A stretch of DNA of 64,000 bases, taken from assembly GCF_020097155.1 (NCBI RefSeq), contig NZ_CP083691.1:186001-250000 (forward strand), given 5' to 3'. A program made the position numbers and the translations under genes. The first letter of the stretch is position 1. Each line of letters opens with the position of its first letter. This document shows, piece after piece, positions 3,573 through 62,764 of this stretch. The DNA is from Micrococcus porci (GTDB lineage: Bacteria > Actinomycetota > Actinomycetes > Actinomycetales > Micrococcaceae). Under the pieces are notes generated by a model. The model was not told the DNA's origin. It saw only the letters and a list, made by a program, of their open reading frames with translations, and did no database searches.

Positions 3573-4394
3573 TCAGCCCCCAGGCTCGACGTCGACCGGC
3601 GGGGTCAGCACGTCGGTCCGGCGGTTCGCCAGCACGGGCACGGTGCGGCGCACCTCCTCGACCCGCTCGGCGGTGACGTCCGCGCACAGCAGGGTCTCGG
3701 GGGCGGCGTCGTCGTCGGCCTCGGCGAGGGTGAGCGCGAGGGGGTCGATGATCGCGGAGTGCCCCACGGTGGCGGCGGAGGCGGTGTCCGCGGCGGCCAC
3801 CCACACGGTGTTCTCCACGGCGCGGGCGCGCAACAGGGTCCGCCAGTGGTCCACCTTGTGCTCGCCGGCGAACCACGCGGCGGGGATCGCCAGCACCTGG
3901 GCCCCGGCGAGGGCGAGGGCGCGGGAGACCTCGGGGAAGCGGAGGTCGTAGCAGGTCTGCAGCCCCACGGTCAGCCCGCCGACCTCCACGGTGACGAGGC
4001 CGCGGTCCCCGGGGGTGATGAGCTCGGACTCGCGGTGCTCGAACGCGTCGTAGAGGTGGAGCTTGCGGTACGCGCCGGCGACGGCGCCGTCCGCGTCCAC
4101 CGCCACGAGGGTGTTGTACGGGCGGTCCGTGGCGGAGGGCTCGTACCCGCCCGCGACGATCGCCAGCCCGTGCTGCCGCGCCAGCCGGGCCAGGCCCTCG
4201 GTGAACGGCTCCCAGGAGCCGGCGACGGCGTGCGCGAACTCGTCCTCGACCTCCCGGAACGTGAGCATCGCCTCCTCGGGGAGCACGAGGAGCCCGGCGC
4301 CCTCCGCGGCCGCGCGCGCGGCGAGCCGGCCCATGGCCTCGAGGTTGTCCTCCACGCGGCCCGTGGGCCCGAACTGTCCGACGGCGATCCTCAT
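3573..4394 (-). CDS. carbon-nitrogen (nitrilase) family hydrolase
   Basis: 273-aa cytoplasmic amidase of the nitrilase superfamily, cleaving C-N bonds of amides or ureido compounds. The catalytic triad is visible: Glu at about 40 (LLVLPEEAM), Lys at about 111 (YRKLHLYD) and Cys at about 148 (QTCYDLRFPE). The length fits a stand-alone nitrilase domain. Substrate is unknown; omega-amidase, deaminated-glutathione amidase and N-carbamoyl hydrolase are all possible. The start follows TAGGCT (minus strand, 4402-4407) by 7 nt, so the transcript is probably leaderless. Confidence 0.85.
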   Translation of the reverse strand: MRIAVGQFGPTGRVEDNLEAMGRLAARAAAEGAGLLVLPEEAMLTFREVEDEFAHAVAGSWEPFTEGLARLARQHGLAIVAGGYEPSATDRPYNTLVAVDADGAVAGAYRKLHLYDAFEHRESELITPGDRGLVTVEVGGLTVGLQTCYDLRFPEVSRALALAGAQVLAIPAAWFAGEHKVDHWRTLLRARAVENTVWVAAADTASAATVGHSAIIDPLALTLAEADDDAAPETLLCADVTAERVEEVRRTVPVLANRRTDVLTPPVDVEPGG

Positions 4395-4590
4395 GCCCGC
4401 CAGCCTAGCGACGCCGTGCCCCCACCTCAGCGCGTCCGTCGAGGAACAGGGAGGACGTCACCCCTGGTCAGCACCGGTTCCACCCTCCACGCTGAAGACG
4501 GGCGCGACGTCGGCCCGCCCGCCGCCGTCGTCGTCCGACCGGATCCGCGCCCCTCGGCGCGGAGCAGCCGAGACCCAAGGAGTCACCGCC

Positions 4591-6810
<2,220 letters not shown>

Positions 6811-57347: not shown

Positions 57348-57431
57348 TGGTCCGGGGCCCCCTGTGATGCGTGACACCCACGGGCGTCGCGGGGCCCCGA
57401 GGTGGGCCGGCCCGGCGCTAGGGTGGCGCCC

Positions 57432-58601
57432 ATGACGGACCGCCACGCCACCGCGACGGGGACCCTGCCCGCGGTGCCCGCCGCGGCAGGGCCCTCCGGG
57501 GTGGGCAGGTTCCTGCGCCGCCGGGCCCGCGCCGGCTGGTCCCGGCTGCGCTCCTCGGTGGGCCACGCCGCCCTCATGGCCGTGTGCGCGGTGGGCGCCT
57601 ACTGGTTCGCCGAGACCGTCCTCGGGCACGCCCAGCCCCTGTTCGCGGCGACGGCCCTCCTGATCGCCCTCGGATTCCAGCGCGAGCCCAGGGTCCGCAA
57701 GGTGGCCGAGGTCGCGTTCGGCTGCACGCTCGGCATCCTCATCGGGGACCTCATGATGGCGGCGCTGGGCCGCGGCCTCTGGCAGGCGGTCCTCGTGGTC
57801 TTCGTCTCGGTGCTGGCGGCCCGGTTCCTGGACTCCGGGGCCACCTTCACCATGCAGATGTCCCTGCAGTCCGTGCTCGTGGTGCTCCTCCCCCTCAACG
57901 CGGACGGCCCCTTCGCCCGCTCGGCCGACGCCCTGGTGGGCGGCCTCCTCGCCCTCCTGGTGACCCTCCTGTCCCCCCGGGACCCCACGCGCCTGCCCGC
58001 CCGCCAGCTCCGCGGCCTCTACGAGTCCATGGCCTCCGTGCTGCGGGAGCTCTCCGCCGCCCTCCGCGCGGAGGAGTCCCGCACGGCGTGGATGGCGCTG
58101 GTGGAGTGCCGGCGCACGCAGTCGACACTGGAGGACGTCCGCAAGGAGCTCAAGGTCACCCGGGAGCAGACCGTCCTGAATCCGCTGCAGCGCCCGGCCC
58201 GCGACGCGGCGGACGTCATGGCCGTGGCCGCCGACCGCTCCGACCTCGCCGTCCGCTCCCTGCGGATCGTGGCCCGCCGCGTGGTCTCGATCCTGGACCA
58301 CGGCGCCGTGGACGGCGACCACCGCGAGCGCCTGGCGGCCTGGTTCGACGACGCCGCGGACGCCGTCGAGATCCTGCACCGCTCGCTGGCCGAGCCGCAG
58401 GCCGAGGGGCGGCACCGCTCCCTGGACGTGGCCCGCGACGCCCTGGGCGCCTCCGCCTCGTGGCTGGACCCCCACGAGCTGGCCGGGGGCACCGTGCACG
58501 GCGAGGCGCTGGTGATGCTGCTGCGGCCCATGATGGTGGACCTCATCGAGGCGACGGGCGCCTCCCACGCGGAGGCGCTCACCTACCTGCCGCGCGTCTG
58601 A
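57432..58601 (+). CDS. FUSC/aromatic acid exporter-type membrane protein
   Basis: 389 aa. Four to six TM helices in the first half (ALMAVCAVGAYWFAETVLG; FGCTLGILIGDLMMAALG; LVVLLPLNADGPFARSADAL), followed by a long soluble helical domain with coiled segments, as in FUSC-like efflux proteins. Substrate unknown. TAGGGT (57419-57424) is 7 nt before the ATG: leaderless. Divergent from pstS. Confidence 0.8.
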   Translation: MTDRHATATGTLPAVPAAAGPSGVGRFLRRRARAGWSRLRSSVGHAALMAVCAVGAYWFAETVLGHAQPLFAATALLIALGFQREPRVRKVAEVAFGCTLGILIGDLMMAALGRGLWQAVLVVFVSVLAARFLDSGATFTMQMSLQSVLVVLLPLNADGPFARSADALVGGLLALLVTLLSPRDPTRLPARQLRGLYESMASVLRELSAALRAEESRTAWMALVECRRTQSTLEDVRKELKVTREQTVLNPLQRPARDAADVMAVAADRSDLAVRSLRIVARRVVSILDHGAVDGDHRERLAAWFDDAADAVEILHRSLAEPQAEGRHRSLDVARDALGASASWLDPHELAGGTVHGEALVMLLRPMMVDLIEATGASHAEALTYLPRV

Positions 58602-58622: not shown

Positions 58623-58628
58623 CCTAGC
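58623..58628. repeat. CCTAGC target duplication (three copies)
   Basis: CCTAGC flanks both insertion sequences at 58623-58628, 59723-59728 and 62730-62735. It fits NCTAGN, the 6-bp target known for IS481. Confidence 0.88.
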
Positions 58629-59722
58629 TGTGATGTCCAGGGACGTTGTTGCGTGAGCAGCTGACAGGCGAAGGCCTCCTGTTGCGAGAGTGGAGTTGTC
58701 AAGAAACCGCTCACGCGAACAGAAGGCCTTCATGTCCCACGCTAACGCCGCCCTGACCCCTCGCGCCCGTCTACGCCTGGCCAAGCTCATCGTCGATGAG
58801 CACTGGGCGGTCGCCACCGCGGCCAAGATGTTCATGGTCTCCCCACCCACCGCACGCAAATGGGCCACCCGCTTCCGGGCCGAGGGACCTGCAGGCATGG
58901 TCGACCGGTCCAGCCGGCCGGCCACGATGCCGACCAGAACATCGCCTGCAGTGGTGAAACAGATCGTGGCCGCCAGAAGGCGCCGACGCCTGGGGCCCGT
59001 GCAGATCGCCTCAGAACTCGGGATGCCGGCATCCACCGTCCATGCCGTGCTCGTGCGTTGCCGGATCAACCGCCTCGCCCGTCTGGACCGGGTCACCGCC
59101 GAGCCGATCCGCCGCTATGAGCACCCCCACCCCGGCTCGCTGATCCACGTTGACGTCACGAAGTTCGGACGCATCCCCGACGGGGGCGGGCACCGATTCG
59201 TCGGGCGTCAGCAGGGCATGAAGCACCGCGCGGCGACTTCGGACCGAGAAGGAACCCGTGATGCCCGATACCAGCCCCGGCTCGGGGTGGGCTTCCTGCA
59301 CACCGTGATCGATGACCACTCCCGCTTCGCGTATGTCGAGATGCACTCCGACGAACGCAGCCAGACCGCCATCGCGGTGCTGCGCCGCGCGGTCGCTCAC
59401 TTCGCGCAGCTGGGCGTGGAGGTGGAGCGGGTGCTCTCGGACAACGGTTCGGCCTACCGCTCGCATGCCTGGCGGGATGCTTGCACCGAGCTCGGGATCA
59501 AGCCCAAGCGGACTCGGCCCTACCGACCGCAGACGAACGGGAAGATCGAGCGGTTCCATCGCACGCTCGCTGACGGGTGGGCCTACGCCAAGTTCTACGG
59601 CTCAGAGACCGAACGCAGGGCCGCGTTGCCTGGGTGGGTGCACTTCTACAATCATCACCGAGTCCACTCCGCGATCGGAGCCGCACCTGCCAGCAGGCTC
59701 AACAACCTCCCTGGACATCACA
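58629..59722 (+). mobile_element. IS481-family insertion sequence, 1094 bp
   Basis: Imperfect 23-bp terminal inverted repeats: left begins TGTGATGTCCAGGGACGTTG, right (reverse) TGTGATGTCCAGGGAGGTTG, one mismatch. One intact transposase. Flanked by CCTAGC on both sides. Confidence 0.93.
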
Positions 59723-59727
59723 CCTAG
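58732..59727 (+). CDS. tnp: IS481-family transposase
   Basis: 331-aa DDE transposase. N-terminal HTH (RLRLAKLIVDEHWAVATAAK, SPPTARKWATRFRAEG), then the rve integrase core: HVDVTKFGRIPDGGGHR (first Asp), VLSDNGSAYRS (second Asp) and TNGKIERFHRTL (Glu). The ATG at 58732 follows AGAAGG. The stop codon TAG (59725-59727) lies outside the right terminal repeat, within the CCTAGC target copy, so termination depends on the target site. Confidence 0.93.
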   Translation: MSHANAALTPRARLRLAKLIVDEHWAVATAAKMFMVSPPTARKWATRFRAEGPAGMVDRSSRPATMPTRTSPAVVKQIVAARRRRRLGPVQIASELGMPASTVHAVLVRCRINRLARLDRVTAEPIRRYEHPHPGSLIHVDVTKFGRIPDGGGHRFVGRQQGMKHRAATSDREGTRDARYQPRLGVGFLHTVIDDHSRFAYVEMHSDERSQTAIAVLRRAVAHFAQLGVEVERVLSDNGSAYRSHAWRDACTELGIKPKRTRPYRPQTNGKIERFHRTLADGWAYAKFYGSETERRAALPGWVHFYNHHRVHSAIGAAPASRLNNLPGHHT

Positions 59728-59749
59728 CTGTTCCACTTCATGAGGTTGT

Positions 59750-60835
59750 TTACAGGAGATCGAACAGGGTGGGCTCGTGCCCGAGGCCCTCGATCTGAGG
59801 AACGTCGAGCACCTTCGGCTGAGGCTGGACCCGGTACGACGTGATCGGAACCCGGCTGGCCGGTGGCTTGTTGCCCAGGCTGCTGTGCGGACGGTCATGG
59901 TTGTAGGTGTTCAGGAATGCCGCCAGCGCGGCGGTGCGCTCACCGTCGCTGGCGTAGGCGCGTACGTAGAGCCACTCTTCCTTCATGGTGCGGTTGAAGC
60001 GCTCCACCTTCCCGTTCGTCCGGGGCGTGTGCGGGCGCGTGTACTTGTGAGCCGTTCCGGTTCCTGCGAGGGCGTCGTTGAAGACCTTGGAGCGGTACGC
60101 CGGGCCGTTGTCCGTGAGGCACCGACTGAATGTCGTGATGCCGTGCTCGCGGTAGAACAGCACCGCCCGAAGCCAGAACGCGGCAGCGGTACCCGCCCGC
60201 TCGTCAGGGTGGACTTCGGCGTAGGCCAGGCGGCTGTGGTCGTCCACCGCCGCGTGAATGTAGACGTAGCCGGGACGCCTGCTGGCGACGCGGCGGGAGG
60301 CTAGCGCTTCTTCGGTGCCACGCCCGTGGACGGCCCAACCGCCACCCTCCGGGATACGGCCGACCTTCTTCACGTCGACATGTATCATGTCGCCCGGAGC
60401 GGCGTGCTCGTACCGGCGAGGCTCGCGTTTGGACTCGCCCGTCGGCATGTCCAGGTCCCGCAGGCGACTGATGCCGTTGCGATTGAGGATGCGCCACACC
60501 GTGGCGGGGCTGATGTTGATCGATCCATCGCCGACCGTGGAGAGGTGCCCGGCGATGCGTGCTGGCCCCCACTTCTCGACCGTCCGCAACTGGACCACCA
60601 TCTCCTCGATGTCATTCGGTGTGCGGGTGGGCTGATGGTCGGGCCGAGAGGTCCGGTCGTACAGGCCGGGCTCCCCGTGCAGCAGCCAACGGCGGTACCA
60701 CTTCGTCAGCGCGGCGCGACTGATGCCCCCTTCGTCAGCGACATGAGCGAGCGGACGACCAGCGTCGACGCGTTCGCACAGACGCTTCCGGCCCTCAGGT
60801 GTGAGCGGAGCATTCGCGTGGGTAGGCACTCGCAC
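59750..60835 (-). CDS. tnp: IS481-family transposase of the passenger element
   Basis: 361-aa DDE transposase, clearly different from the neighbouring one. HTH (GGISRAALTKWYRRWLLHGE), then HVDVKKVGRIPEGGGW, CLTDNGPAYRSKVF and TNGKVERFNRTMKEEW carrying the Asp, Asp and Glu. A 40-residue C-terminal tail after the core. The likely start is the GTG at 60835 or a later GTG two codons on. Its upstream region is the MarR palindrome, so the passenger regulator may also control transposition. The TAA stop begins in the terminal repeat. Confidence 0.9.
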   Translation of the reverse strand: MRVPTHANAPLTPEGRKRLCERVDAGRPLAHVADEGGISRAALTKWYRRWLLHGEPGLYDRTSRPDHQPTRTPNDIEEMVVQLRTVEKWGPARIAGHLSTVGDGSINISPATVWRILNRNGISRLRDLDMPTGESKREPRRYEHAAPGDMIHVDVKKVGRIPEGGGWAVHGRGTEEALASRRVASRRPGYVYIHAAVDDHSRLAYAEVHPDERAGTAAAFWLRAVLFYREHGITTFSRCLTDNGPAYRSKVFNDALAGTGTAHKYTRPHTPRTNGKVERFNRTMKEEWLYVRAYASDGERTAALAAFLNTYNHDRPHSSLGNKPPASRVPITSYRVQPQPKVLDVPQIEGLGHEPTLFDLL

Positions 60836-60852
60836 TCACCGACGGAGACACT

Positions 60853-60882
60853 AGATGTTTCAACATGTATGTCGTAACATCT
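60853..60882. promoter_or_regulatory. 30-bp palindrome over the passenger promoter
   Basis: AGATGTT...AACATCT outer arms and ACAT/ATGT inner arms; 12 of 15 pairs match. TAACAT (60875-60880), 6 nt before the hydrolase ATG, lies inside it, so a bound MarR dimer would cover the minus-10. It also lies 17 bp upstream of the transposase start on the other strand. Confidence 0.75.
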
Positions 60883-60886
60883 AATC

Positions 60887-61609
60887 ATGAGCAACTCTAC
60901 ATTGGTCTTCGTCCCGTGCTTCTCTGGTGCCCCTTGGGAGGTGGAGCAACTCACCGCCCTCGCCGATCACCCTCGCCGGACCATGCGGCTCCCCGAGAGT
61001 CTCGATGACATCGAGGCCTACGCTGATGCGCTCTCGTCCGAGGTCGCCGACCTGGGCGACTACGTGCTGGTCGGCGACTCCTTCGGCGCGAACATCGCCC
61101 TGGCGCTGGGAGCCCGTCAGCCGGAGGGGCTTTCGGGCCTGGTGCTCTCGGGTGGCTTCGCTGCAAACCCGATCACCTCACCCGCCTGGAAGGCAGCGAT
61201 GCGCCTCATGGGCAGGCTGCGGGGTCCGGCATACCGCCAGATGGTGCTTCGCGCCCACGCCCACCGACTGGCCTCGCCGCACGACACCGAAGGGCAGGTG
61301 CCCTGGTCGGAGTCGCAGAGTCGCCAGTTGTTTCTCGATCACACGCCAGCGACGTCATTCGGCGCTCGCGTCACGGCCGTACTGAACGCCGACTACACCG
61401 ACGAGCTGGACCGGATTCAGGTCCCGACGCTGATCTTGACGCCGTCCCACGACACGCTCATCGGGGACGATGCGGCCCGCGTGTTGCGCGATGGCATCCC
61501 GCATGCCCGAGAGCGCGTGCTGGAGCGGACCGGGCACATGTTCCGGTTCACCCACCCAGAAACCTACAGCCAGGCTGTCGCCGAGTTCCTCGCTGACGAG
61601 TCGCTGTAA
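60887..61609 (+). CDS. alpha/beta hydrolase, passenger of the IS element
   Basis: 240 aa. VGDSFGANIALALG holds the nucleophile Ser, TPSHDTLIG the Asp and RTGHMFRFTHPE the His, a complete triad. Similar proteins include esterases and C-C hydrolases; substrate unknown. The start is leaderless (TAACAT, 6 nt). Pairing with a MarR gene suggests detoxification of, or response to, a small aromatic or ester compound; this is inference. Confidence 0.85.
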   Translation: MSNSTLVFVPCFSGAPWEVEQLTALADHPRRTMRLPESLDDIEAYADALSSEVADLGDYVLVGDSFGANIALALGARQPEGLSGLVLSGGFAANPITSPAWKAAMRLMGRLRGPAYRQMVLRAHAHRLASPHDTEGQVPWSESQSRQLFLDHTPATSFGARVTAVLNADYTDELDRIQVPTLILTPSHDTLIGDDAARVLRDGIPHARERVLERTGHMFRFTHPETYSQAVAEFLADESL

Positions 61610-61622
61610 GGAGAGAGCATCA

Positions 61623-62099
61623 ATGCGCGCCGTCGAAGAACTCCGCTACCTCATCCTCGCTGCCCAGCGGGAAGGCAACCGCCTCCTTGCTCAGGGGCTG
61701 CGCGCACTTGGCTTGACCCCATCCCAGGCAGAGGTGCTCCGAATCCTGAGTGACCACCAGCCCCTCACGCTGAGCGCCCTCGGCGGGCTGCTGGTCTGCG
61801 ACAGCGGGCAGAGCCCCAGTCGCCTCGTCGACCGACTGGTTGGCAAGGGCTACATCGAACGCACCCCGTCGAAGCAGGACCGCCGCAGCGTCGAACTCGC
61901 CCTGACAGCGGAGGGTTCCGCCGCCTCAGCGAAGGTCGCCGAGATCGAGGAGGACGTCTACGCCCTGATCGGCGAGGCACTCGGCGGAACCGATCCGCAG
62001 CCCCTGACGGAGTTCCTCTGGAAGGTCGTTGGCGGCACCGTCGCCGGCGAAGCGTTGGCCCAGCGGCGCGCGAGCCAGCAGGAGCAGACCAATGTCTGA
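61623..62099 (+). CDS. MarR-family regulator, passenger of the IS element
   Basis: 158 aa. Standard MarR fold: LRALGLTPSQAEVLRILSDH, TLSALGGLLVCDSGQSPSRLVDRLVGKGYIER as the recognition helix and wing region (about 49-80) and SKQDRRSVELALTAEG. AAGGAGA precedes the ATG, 13 bp after the hydrolase stop, so it is cotranscribed. It probably binds the 30-bp palindrome upstream of the hydrolase gene. Confidence 0.9.
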   Translation: MRAVEELRYLILAAQREGNRLLAQGLRALGLTPSQAEVLRILSDHQPLTLSALGGLLVCDSGQSPSRLVDRLVGKGYIERTPSKQDRRSVELALTAEGSAASAKVAEIEEDVYALIGEALGGTDPQPLTEFLWKVVGGTVAGEALAQRRASQQEQTNV

Positions 62100-62667
62100 T
62101 GTTCGCCGGACGGTGTGGATCATGGTCACCTACGCCGCGATCGGACTGCCGCTCTACCTGCCGATGTCGGCAAGGCTCAACAAGAAGGTCATGGGCTCGC
62201 CGCGGCCCATGTTCTGGGGAGCAAGCCCAATTGGCTGGCTCACGTCAGCAGGCCTCTGGCGGTACTTCCTCGGGTATGTGACCCGCCGAGACCTCGCTCG
62301 TCGGCGAGTTGAGGAGCGAGAGGAAAGGGCATGGGGACGAAGACGTCAGGAGTCGCGCCGCGCGACCACCCGCCGTTCGCCAACAGTGACGACGGCTACG
62401 CCTGGCAGTCCAACTGGTGCGACCGGTGTATCCACGACCAGCCTGCCCGCGAAGGTCGCTACGAGGACGCCTGCGGTATCTGGTACATCGCCGAGTGCGG
62501 GCAGACGCCAGGCGAGTGGCTACGCCAGCCCGGCCAGCGGTACGGCGACCAGTACCACTGCATCGAGTTCCGTAGCGAAGACGACGGCCCGGAGCCGCCG
62601 ACCGACCCGGAGCCCACTCCGCCCGGTCAGGGCGAACTCCTACCGATGGAGCCCTACCTCGGAGTGA
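62092..62667 (+). CDS. small membrane protein with an overrunning C-terminal frame
   Basis: Starts inside the MarR end (8-bp overlap). The first 80 residues look real: MSDVRRTVWIMVTYAAIGLP, a second hydrophobic stretch near 40-62, and a charged RRRVEEREER segment. From 62331 on, the frame (to residue 191) is Ser/Thr/Pro/Arg-rich and overlaps a better gene in another frame, so the natural stop may have been lost by rearrangement or a frameshift. Confidence 0.55.
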   Translation: MSDVRRTVWIMVTYAAIGLPLYLPMSARLNKKVMGSPRPMFWGASPIGWLTSAGLWRYFLGYVTRRDLARRRVEEREERAWGRRRQESRRATTRRSPTVTTATPGSPTGATGVSTTSLPAKVATRTPAVSGTSPSAGRRQASGYASPASGTATSTTASSSVAKTTARSRRPTRSPLRPVRANSYRWSPTSE

Positions 62668-62720
62668 AGATGTTCGCGGACGTGGCTGCCGAAGTAGCCA
62701 CGGTGTCAACAACCTCATGA
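62331..62720 (+). CDS. Cys/Trp-rich hypothetical protein ending in the terminal repeat
   Basis: 129 aa. SNWCDRCIHDQPAREGRYED, DACGIWYIAECGQTPGEWLR and QYHCIEFRSEDD have spaced Cys that could bind metal; reminiscent of small phage proteins, no named family. GAGGAAAGG gives a good start at 62331. The final residues (VSTTS) and TGA stop are in the right terminal inverted repeat, so its C-terminus was cut or shaped by the element end. Confidence 0.68.
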   Translation: MGTKTSGVAPRDHPPFANSDDGYAWQSNWCDRCIHDQPAREGRYEDACGIWYIAECGQTPGEWLRQPGQRYGDQYHCIEFRSEDDGPEPPTDPEPTPPGQGELLPMEPYLGVKMFADVAAEVATVSTTS

Positions 62721-62764
62721 AGTGGAACACCTAGCGCGTCCGCCCCCGTGGCTAGGGTGACGGC

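What the first reader, a model, noticed from the sequence alone, without database searches (positions are those of the whole stretch)
59729..62729. IS481-type element carrying a regulated passenger cassette
A 3.0-kb element with perfect 22-bp terminal repeats and a CCTAGC duplication contains, besides its transposase, an alpha/beta hydrolase, a MarR regulator and two more ORFs divergently arranged. Typical IS481 members are 1-1.3 kb with only a transposase. It is an autonomous transposon with a self-regulated metabolic or detoxification module.
Basis: partly seen in the sequence, partly recalled or inferred. Interest (0 to 1): 0.82.

Follow-up and report, generated by a model that had tools for sequence, protein, structure and literature searches.

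The report
Jumping gene carrying a regulated enzyme
A 3-kb mobile DNA element in a Micrococcus-like bacterium carries, next to its transposase, an enzyme gene and the gene of that enzyme's probable regulator; it is a real transposon of a kind already described, and the open question is whether the cargo's regulator also controls jumping.

Summary
Window 59729-62729 is a 3,001-bp element with 22-nt perfect terminal repeats and a CCTAGC duplication. It holds an intact IS481-family transposase and, divergently, abh (alpha/beta hydrolase), marR, a doubtful ORF4 and a phage-like ORF5. In 10 of 10 other genomes of the genus the two flanking genes adjoin without it. It is single-copy here. A 99%-identical piece of its transposase end, at a different NCTAGN site, lies in Dermacoccus. 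A separate ordinary 1,094-bp IS481 abuts on the left and shares one CCTAGC.

Seen here: the nearest transposases found (56-57% identical, mycobacterial plasmids) also carry cargo, each a different one; abh-marR is a conserved chromosomal pair (7 of 7 other loci) with a conserved upstream palindrome (7 of 8 loci). In this element that palindrome lies in the 51-bp gap shared with the transposase gene, so the cargo repressor could also gate transposition. That is untested. The hydrolase's substrate is unknown.

The parts
58623..58628 (.). outer-left CCTAGC target duplication (NCTAGN) of the neighbouring IS481
58629..59722 (+). separate, ordinary 1,094-bp IS481-family IS (transposase ORF 58690-59727; its TAG stop is supplied by the CCTAGC duplication)
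   Evidence: ends 19 of 20 matched, TSD CCTAGC; NF033577 336.6 bits
59723..59728 (.). middle CCTAGC, shared by the two elements; left duplication of the 3-kb element
59729..59754 (+). left terminal inverted repeat (22 nt perfect, 25 of 26)
59750..60835 (-). IS481-family transposase, 361 aa, GTG start, DDE residues D154, D242, E278 intact
60836..60886 (.). 51-bp intergenic region shared by the divergent transposase and hydrolase genes
60852..60883 (.). palindrome TAGATGTT...AACATCTA with core CAACATGTATGTCG (60861-60874), candidate MarR operator, conserved upstream of abh-marR pairs
60887..61609 (+). abh: alpha/beta hydrolase, 240 aa, nucleophile motif GDSFG; candidate triad S65, D189, H217 the same in 8 of 8 aligned sequences
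61623..62099 (+). marR: MarR-family regulator, 158 aa
62092..62667 (+). ORF4: start overlaps the marR stop by 8 bp; possible small membrane protein (by eye) whose last ~111 codons lie out of frame under ORF5; no relatives found; doubtful as a complete gene
62331..62720 (+). ORF5: phage-type Cys-containing protein, 129 aa (PHROG 6074); its TGA stop lies inside the right terminal repeat
62704..62729 (-). right terminal inverted repeat
62730..62735 (.). right CCTAGC duplication, 29 bp before the radA-type gene

Best explanation
A unit transposon of the IS481 family. One transposase acts on a single pair of about 26-bp ends and inserts at NCTAGN with a 6-bp duplication. Between the transposase's 5' end and the distal end it carries a captured chromosomal operon (hydrolase + MarR) and a piece of phage-type DNA (ORF5). 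Shown by sequence comparison: ends, duplication, empty sites in congeners, intact DDE residues, conserved cargo pair, conserved palindrome. Inferred: MarR binds the palindrome in the 51-bp gap and represses its own operon until a small-molecule ligand, probably a substrate or analogue of the hydrolase, releases it; transposition proceeds as in other IS481/IS3-type elements. Inferred with less confidence: the same operator also damps the divergent transposase gene, because a promoter for it inside the gap would have to overlap the palindrome.
For: Ends and duplication. In 10 of 10 other genomes of the genus the gene left of both elements and the radA-type gene lie next to each other, with no match to the transposases, abh, marR, ORF4 or ORF5 in the about 3.6 kb held. 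Transposase assigned to IS481, with the three catalytic positions identical in 48 of 48 aligned rows. Element 66% GC against 76% on either side of the two elements. A near-identical transposase end (99% over 270 bp) in Dermacoccus abyssi at TCTAGG, another NCTAGN. The four closest plasmid hits (56-57%) are two M. chimaera and two M. abscessus records; three of the four were fetched and all three enclose cargo between matched ends: 1,972 bp with ACTAGC twice, and 2,501 bp with CCTAGT; the fourth has an identical transposase. abh and marR are neighbours in 7 of 7 other loci, 50-71% and 45-61% identical, divergent in one (L038). Palindrome core at 11-14 of 14 positions in 7 of 8 loci.
Against: Only one complete copy is known: no second copy in the genome; by its end at up to 2 mismatches, 396 genomes of the order gave the exact Dermacoccus piece and nine single 2-mismatch sites that were not followed; none in the plasmid or viral collections. 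So current mobility is not shown, nor that transposase and cargo move together repeatedly. The Dermacoccus copy is cut short before the cargo. One abh-marR locus (L039) lacks the palindrome (8 of 14, reached by 896 of 2000 shuffles). The core was read from L036 after looking, so that row matches by construction. The promoter scan found no site on either strand (shuffles mean 0.3).
Confidence: 0.87

Rival explanations
1. Composite insertion: a solo IS481 next to chromosomal cargo, the far repeat coming from a second, degraded IS copy.
For: A separate IS481 does sit directly left.
Against: The left IS has different ends (TGTGATGTCC...) and its own complete pair. The 3-kb element's two ends match each other 20 of 20 and flank identical hexamers. 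Congeners have no cargo there. No third end of this type exists in the genome within 3 mismatches.
Confidence: 0.04
2. The cargo is a passenger without influence on transposition: its MarR regulates only its own operon, and the transposase is read from a weak promoter inside or near the hydrolase gene, independent of MarR.
For: The same palindrome lies upstream of abh in relatives without any transposase, so it belongs to abh-marR. No promoter was recognised on either strand.
Against: A transposase promoter within the 51-bp gap would overlap the palindrome.
Confidence: 0.5
3. The element is a relic that moved once into this lineage and can no longer transpose.
For: Single copy; no complete copy elsewhere in the searched sets.
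Against: Intact ORF, DDE triad, ends and duplication.
Confidence: 0.3

Closest known systems
ISArsp12 (IS481 family, Arthrobacter plasmid pA2H1; 86% nucleotide identity to ISPfr21 of Propionibacterium freudenreichii), PMC6305408, passages seen
   Same: IS481-family element of 2,615 bp, 20-bp ends, 6-bp CCTAGA duplication, two passenger genes: a regulator (ArsR) and one effector (permease).
   Different: Other ends (TGTACTGACCGGACACGTTG), other regulator and effector; its transposase was not compared here.
TnRErm46 / ISRe46 (Rhodococcus equi), PMC6794481, passages seen
   Same: IS481-family unit transposon, NCTAGN duplication, 20-bp end TGTTGCGGGTCATGACGTTG (15 of 20 identical to this one), cargo including a regulator (TetR); a distal gene takes its TGA stop from the terminal repeat, as ORF5 does; multiple insertions reported.
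   Different: 6.9 kb, macrolide-resistance cargo, transposase 51% identical and in another branch of the tree; transposase gene in line with erm(46) instead of divergent from the cargo. Whether its distal hypothetical gene resembles ORF5 was not tested.
Elements found here on M. chimaera (1,972 bp) and M. abscessus (2,501 bp) plasmids
   Same: Nearest transposases found (56-57%), identical NCTAGN flanks, cargo placed between the transposase 5' end and the distal repeat.
   Different: Cargo is a DNA-modification-type gene (weak Mom match below Pfam's cut-off; D12 adenine methylase); I saw no regulator gene among the ORFs looked at.
Chromosomal abh-marR gene pairs (L033-L039)
   Same: Same two genes (same order in 6 of 7; marR divergent in L038); palindrome upstream in 6 of 7.
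   Different: No match to the window's two IS481 transposases within the 0.7-1.5 kb of flank fetched.

Membership tests
IS481 family | DDE transposase of the IS481 type | tested here: met
   NF033577 312.8 bits, cut-off 224; D154, D242, E278 match in 48 of 48 aligned rows
IS481 family | terminal inverted repeats beginning 5'-TGT and ending ACA-3' | tested here: met
   TGTTCCACTTC...GAAGTGGAACA; relatives likewise (that scan required TG...CA)
IS481 family | 6-bp NCTAGN target duplication (as in TnRErm46) | tested here: met
   CCTAGC on both sides
IS481 family | length near 1-1.3 kb with a transposase only (typical form) | tested here: not met
   3,001 bp; the solo relatives measured here are 1,052-1,129 bp. 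Not a bar to membership, since passenger-carrying IS481 elements are published.
Cargo-carrying IS481 unit transposon (ISArsp12 / TnRErm46 kind) | cargo enclosed with the transposase between one pair of matching ends and one duplication | tested here: met
Cargo-carrying IS481 unit transposon (ISArsp12 / TnRErm46 kind) | transposes as a unit to several sites | tested here: inconclusive
   one complete copy; a truncated copy at another NCTAGN in Dermacoccus shows that the IS end has moved, not that the cargo has
MarR-autoregulated operon | MarR binds a palindrome over its own promoter and is released by a ligand | tested here: inconclusive
   conserved palindrome in 7 of 8 loci; no binding or expression data
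MarR-autoregulated operon | MarR-family winged-helix domain | tested here: met
   PF01047 E 7.6e-14; PDB MarR chain E 3.7e-10

The most novel reading that the evidence does not exclude
The cargo's ligand-responsive repressor also controls the transposase, so the transposon jumps when its host meets the compound that the cargo hydrolase handles. Other cargo-bearing IS481 elements may have reached the same end by a different route: their transposase start codon overlaps the last cargo gene (the NAD(P)H-binding gene by 4 bp in S. anthocyanicus; erm(46) in TnRErm46-type elements), which ties transposase translation to a regulated cargo operon.
Probability: 0.25. Interest if true: 0.6.

Novelty: new member of a known kind. 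Interest (0 to 1): 0.36.

Why it matters
It adds a well-delimited member to the published set of IS481 elements that carry whole gene cassettes, with a hydrolase-MarR cassette that I did not see in the papers read. The nearest transposases that I found also carry cargo, each a different one, which suggests that some IS481 lineages are gene carriers by habit. If the shared 51-bp control region couples transposition to the cargo's inducer, exposure that favours the cargo would also drive its spread, an idea that a reporter assay can test directly.

Tried and rejected
Looked for a third copy of the end inside the element, which would have meant nested or composite structure: none within 3 mismatches. 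Considered ACTAGA (60850-60855) followed by TGTTTCAACATG as a relic IS end: rejected, since it reads outward to the cargo side and the same spot holds a palindrome in relatives without transposons.

Looked for other copies of the element: own genome, 11 genomes of the genus, 396 and 386 genomes of the order, plasmids by DNA, the 20-nt end in genome contigs and viral contigs, the proteins in viral contigs. Only the Dermacoccus piece was found. The genome searches are samples (the tool draws evenly from larger groups). The nine 2-mismatch sites were not followed.

Looked for an ORF4 family: no Pfam or NCBIfam match for its first 84 aa, one PHROGs match at E 0.093 for the 191-aa frame, no hits in phages or plasmids, none confirmed in viral contigs, and nothing better than E 2.5 in the held abh-marR and phage loci. 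ORF5 was found in 1 of 198 genomes of the order, its own, in 2 plasmid records (40-47% identical, part of its length), in no record of the phages collection, but in 7 IMG/VR loci.

Hydrolase substrate: the best NCBIfam matches (PcaD, RutD and others) are far below their cut-offs, and the PDB matches (proline iminopeptidase, esterases, RsbQ, RutD) reach at most 46.5 bits. No substrate is claimed. No structure was predicted.

Tree: 48 rows (36 different): the two window transposases and 46 of 49 loci given; L006, L016 and L091 gave no row of 280 aa or more. Cargo carriage clusters: 2 changes against a shuffled mean of 5.6-5.7, reached by 0 of 500 shuffles, but near-copies inflate this and 10 rows without a label were left out; 3 changes once L086 and L087 were counted as solo. 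The node joining the window element with the mycobacterial ones has support 88/65 and is not firm, and the window row has a long branch. The TnRErm46 label on L047 comes from the paper and the annotation: in that record my end scan found no matching pair.

Against my reading that the cargo carriers are the nearest kin: by the HMMER identities, solo elements of one genome (G458) reach 54-56% over a somewhat shorter stretch; by tblastn they are 51-53%, and by path in the tree the mycobacterial cargo elements are nearer (1.07-1.14 against 1.51 or more).

The notebook entry was written before L086 and L087 were recognised as solo and before the empty-site check.
Full report
What is there. Window 59729-62729 is bounded by inverted repeats TGTTCCACTTCATGAGGTTGTT... 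(22 nt perfect, 25 of 26) with CCTAGC directly outside each end. The 20-nt end is found only at these two places in the window at up to 3 mismatches, where 100 shuffles give a mean of 0.00, and only at these two places in the 2,648,900-base genome. Inside are an IS481-family transposase on the - strand and, divergent from it, an alpha/beta hydrolase (abh), a MarR regulator, an uncertain ORF4 and ORF5 on the + strand.

It is an insertion. In 10 of 10 other genomes of the genus that were searched, the homologue of the gene at 57402-58601 and the radA-type gene lie next to each other, and none of the transposases, abh, marR, ORF4 or ORF5 is matched in the about 3.6 kb held of each. GC is 66% inside against 76% on either side of the two elements (profile). 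The left neighbour, 58629-59722, is a separate 1,094-bp IS481 with its own ends (19 of 20) and shares the middle CCTAGC, so two IS481-type elements entered the same NCTAGN site, one after the other. The order of the two events cannot be told.

Relatives of the transposase. Only a piece of this exact element was seen elsewhere: in Dermacoccus abyssi 270 bp of the transposase end are 99% identical and end at TCTAGG; the piece begins next to other DNA about 100 bases from the contig's edge, so nothing is known about cargo there. One search found 155 plasmid records with a related transposase at E 1e-60 or better. I fetched regions of 13 of them, picked from the 30 listed rows and not at random, and did not use the last. 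The top four hits (56-57%) are two M. chimaera and two M. abscessus records. I looked for matched ends at CTAG sites in 34 loci: 28 gave a pair of ends. Of these, 4 loci (3 different elements) enclose cargo and 24 measure 1,052-1,129 bp; in 4 of the 24 the aligned transposase piece ran past one end, and in 2 (L063, L073) the two hexamers differ. Six loci gave no pair; two of those six, L086 and L087, were later seen to share an exact 1,118-bp block, that is, solo copies. The cargo carriers are M. chimaera (1,972 bp, duplication ACTAGC, two records, a gene with a Mom match below Pfam's cut-off), M. abscessus (2,501 bp, CCTAGT, D12 adenine methylase) and Streptomyces anthocyanicus (2,071 bp, CCTAGG, HxlR regulator plus NAD(P)H-binding protein). 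The loci from whole genomes reach only about 1.5 kb beyond the match, so larger elements could have been missed where no ends were found. In a tree the window transposase groups with the mycobacterial cargo elements, weakly (88/65), and the cargo label needs at least two changes, three once L086 and L087 are counted as solo. Solo elements are not much farther off: 51-53% by tblastn for the nearest genome copies, 54% for L062.

Relatives of the cargo. The hydrolase was found at E 1e-40 or better in 1 other of 386 genomes of the order and 6 others of 394 of the class; both are samples. In 7 of 7 the marR homologue lies next to it, in one case (L038) divergent. None of these loci matches the window's transposases in the fetched flank. 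The candidate catalytic residues S65, D189 and H217 are the same in 8 of 8 aligned sequences. Upstream of abh a palindrome with core CGACATATATGTCG is present at 11-14 of 14 positions in 7 of 8 loci, each reached by at most 5 of 2,000 shuffles; L039 lacks it (8 of 14, 896 of 2,000). The core was read from L036, so that row is by construction. In the window the wider palindrome is 60852-60883. In L034 and L037 a TTGACA precedes and a TAATCT follows the core, which by general knowledge of promoters suggests that repressor and polymerase would compete. ORF5 belongs to PHROG 6074 and has homologues of 37-50% identity in 7 IMG/VR loci; the one phage neighbourhood that I read, L040, was read by eye only. 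It is probably captured phage-type DNA. The last codons of ORF5, with its TGA stop, lie in the terminal repeat.

How it probably works. The transposase binds its two ends and inserts at NCTAGN; this is inferred from family knowledge and from the duplications. MarR probably binds the palindrome and shuts its own operon until a ligand appears. The transposase gene starts at 60835 (GTG) and the palindrome begins at 60852, so a transposase promoter in the gap would have to overlap it. No promoter was recognised by the scan on either strand, so this is an argument from space, not a detected promoter. In S. anthocyanicus the transposase start overlaps the preceding cargo gene by 4 bp, and in erm(46) elements the transposase start likewise overlaps the end of erm(46). 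Together these raise, but do not show, the idea that cargo control extends to transposition in this kind of element. The two mycobacterial elements have a gap between cargo and transposase and say nothing for it.

Compared with what is known. PMC6305408 (passages seen) describes ISArsp12, an IS481 element of 2,615 bp with 20-bp ends, a CCTAGA duplication and two passenger genes, an ArsR regulator and a permease, 86% identical to ISPfr21. PMC6794481 (passages seen) describes TnRErm46, 6.9 kb, NCTAGN duplications at many sites, cargo including a TetR regulator, and states that IS481 members may carry cargo genes such as resistance determinants and regulators. PMC8304765 (passages seen) lists IS5564 as IS481 with Tn5564 and chloramphenicol-resistance genes. 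So the kind is known; this element is a new member with a different cassette. I did not find this cassette or this element in the paper searches made (the last, for IS481 with MarR and alpha-beta hydrolase, found 0 papers); they cover open-access papers only. ISfinder could not be searched.

Verdict. New member of a known kind. Interest 0.36, with the cargo-gated transposition reading as the part worth testing.

Noticed in passing
window 58623-59728: An ordinary 1,094-bp IS481 (close relatives of 1,097 bp elsewhere in the genome, L007 and L008, about 95% identical transposase) abuts the 3-kb element and shares one CCTAGC: two IS481-type insertions at the same NCTAGN site; its transposase takes its TAG stop from the duplication.
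   Followed up: partly
L061:3184-3903 and L084:3892-4893: The M. chimaera and M. abscessus IS481 elements carry different genes (weak Mom match; D12 adenine methylase) that share a Cys-rich C-terminal tail (55% over 53 aa), as if the tail belonged to the transposon and the enzyme part had been swapped.
   Followed up: partly
L088:3928-6008: S. anthocyanicus IS481 element of 2,071 bp (3933-6003) with an HxlR regulator divergent from an NAD(P)H-binding gene whose end overlaps the transposase start by 4 bp.
   Followed up: partly
L086:4874-5991 and L087:4874-5991: Two Rhodococcus plasmids carry identical 1,118-bp solo copies of a relative of the TnRErm46 transposase, flanked by GTTAAC and ACTAAC instead of NCTAGN: a relaxed target.
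   Followed up: no
L033:28-1311: In one genome of the order a transporter-like ORF (MFS type by eye) lies directly upstream of the chromosomal abh-marR pair, a hint towards export or detoxification; not checked in the other loci.
   Followed up: no
L047:5703-8509: In the P. equi p1-WH99 record a sequence like the TnRErm46 end, one base short, lies inside the erm(46) region, with unlike hexamers at the two ends.
   Followed up: no
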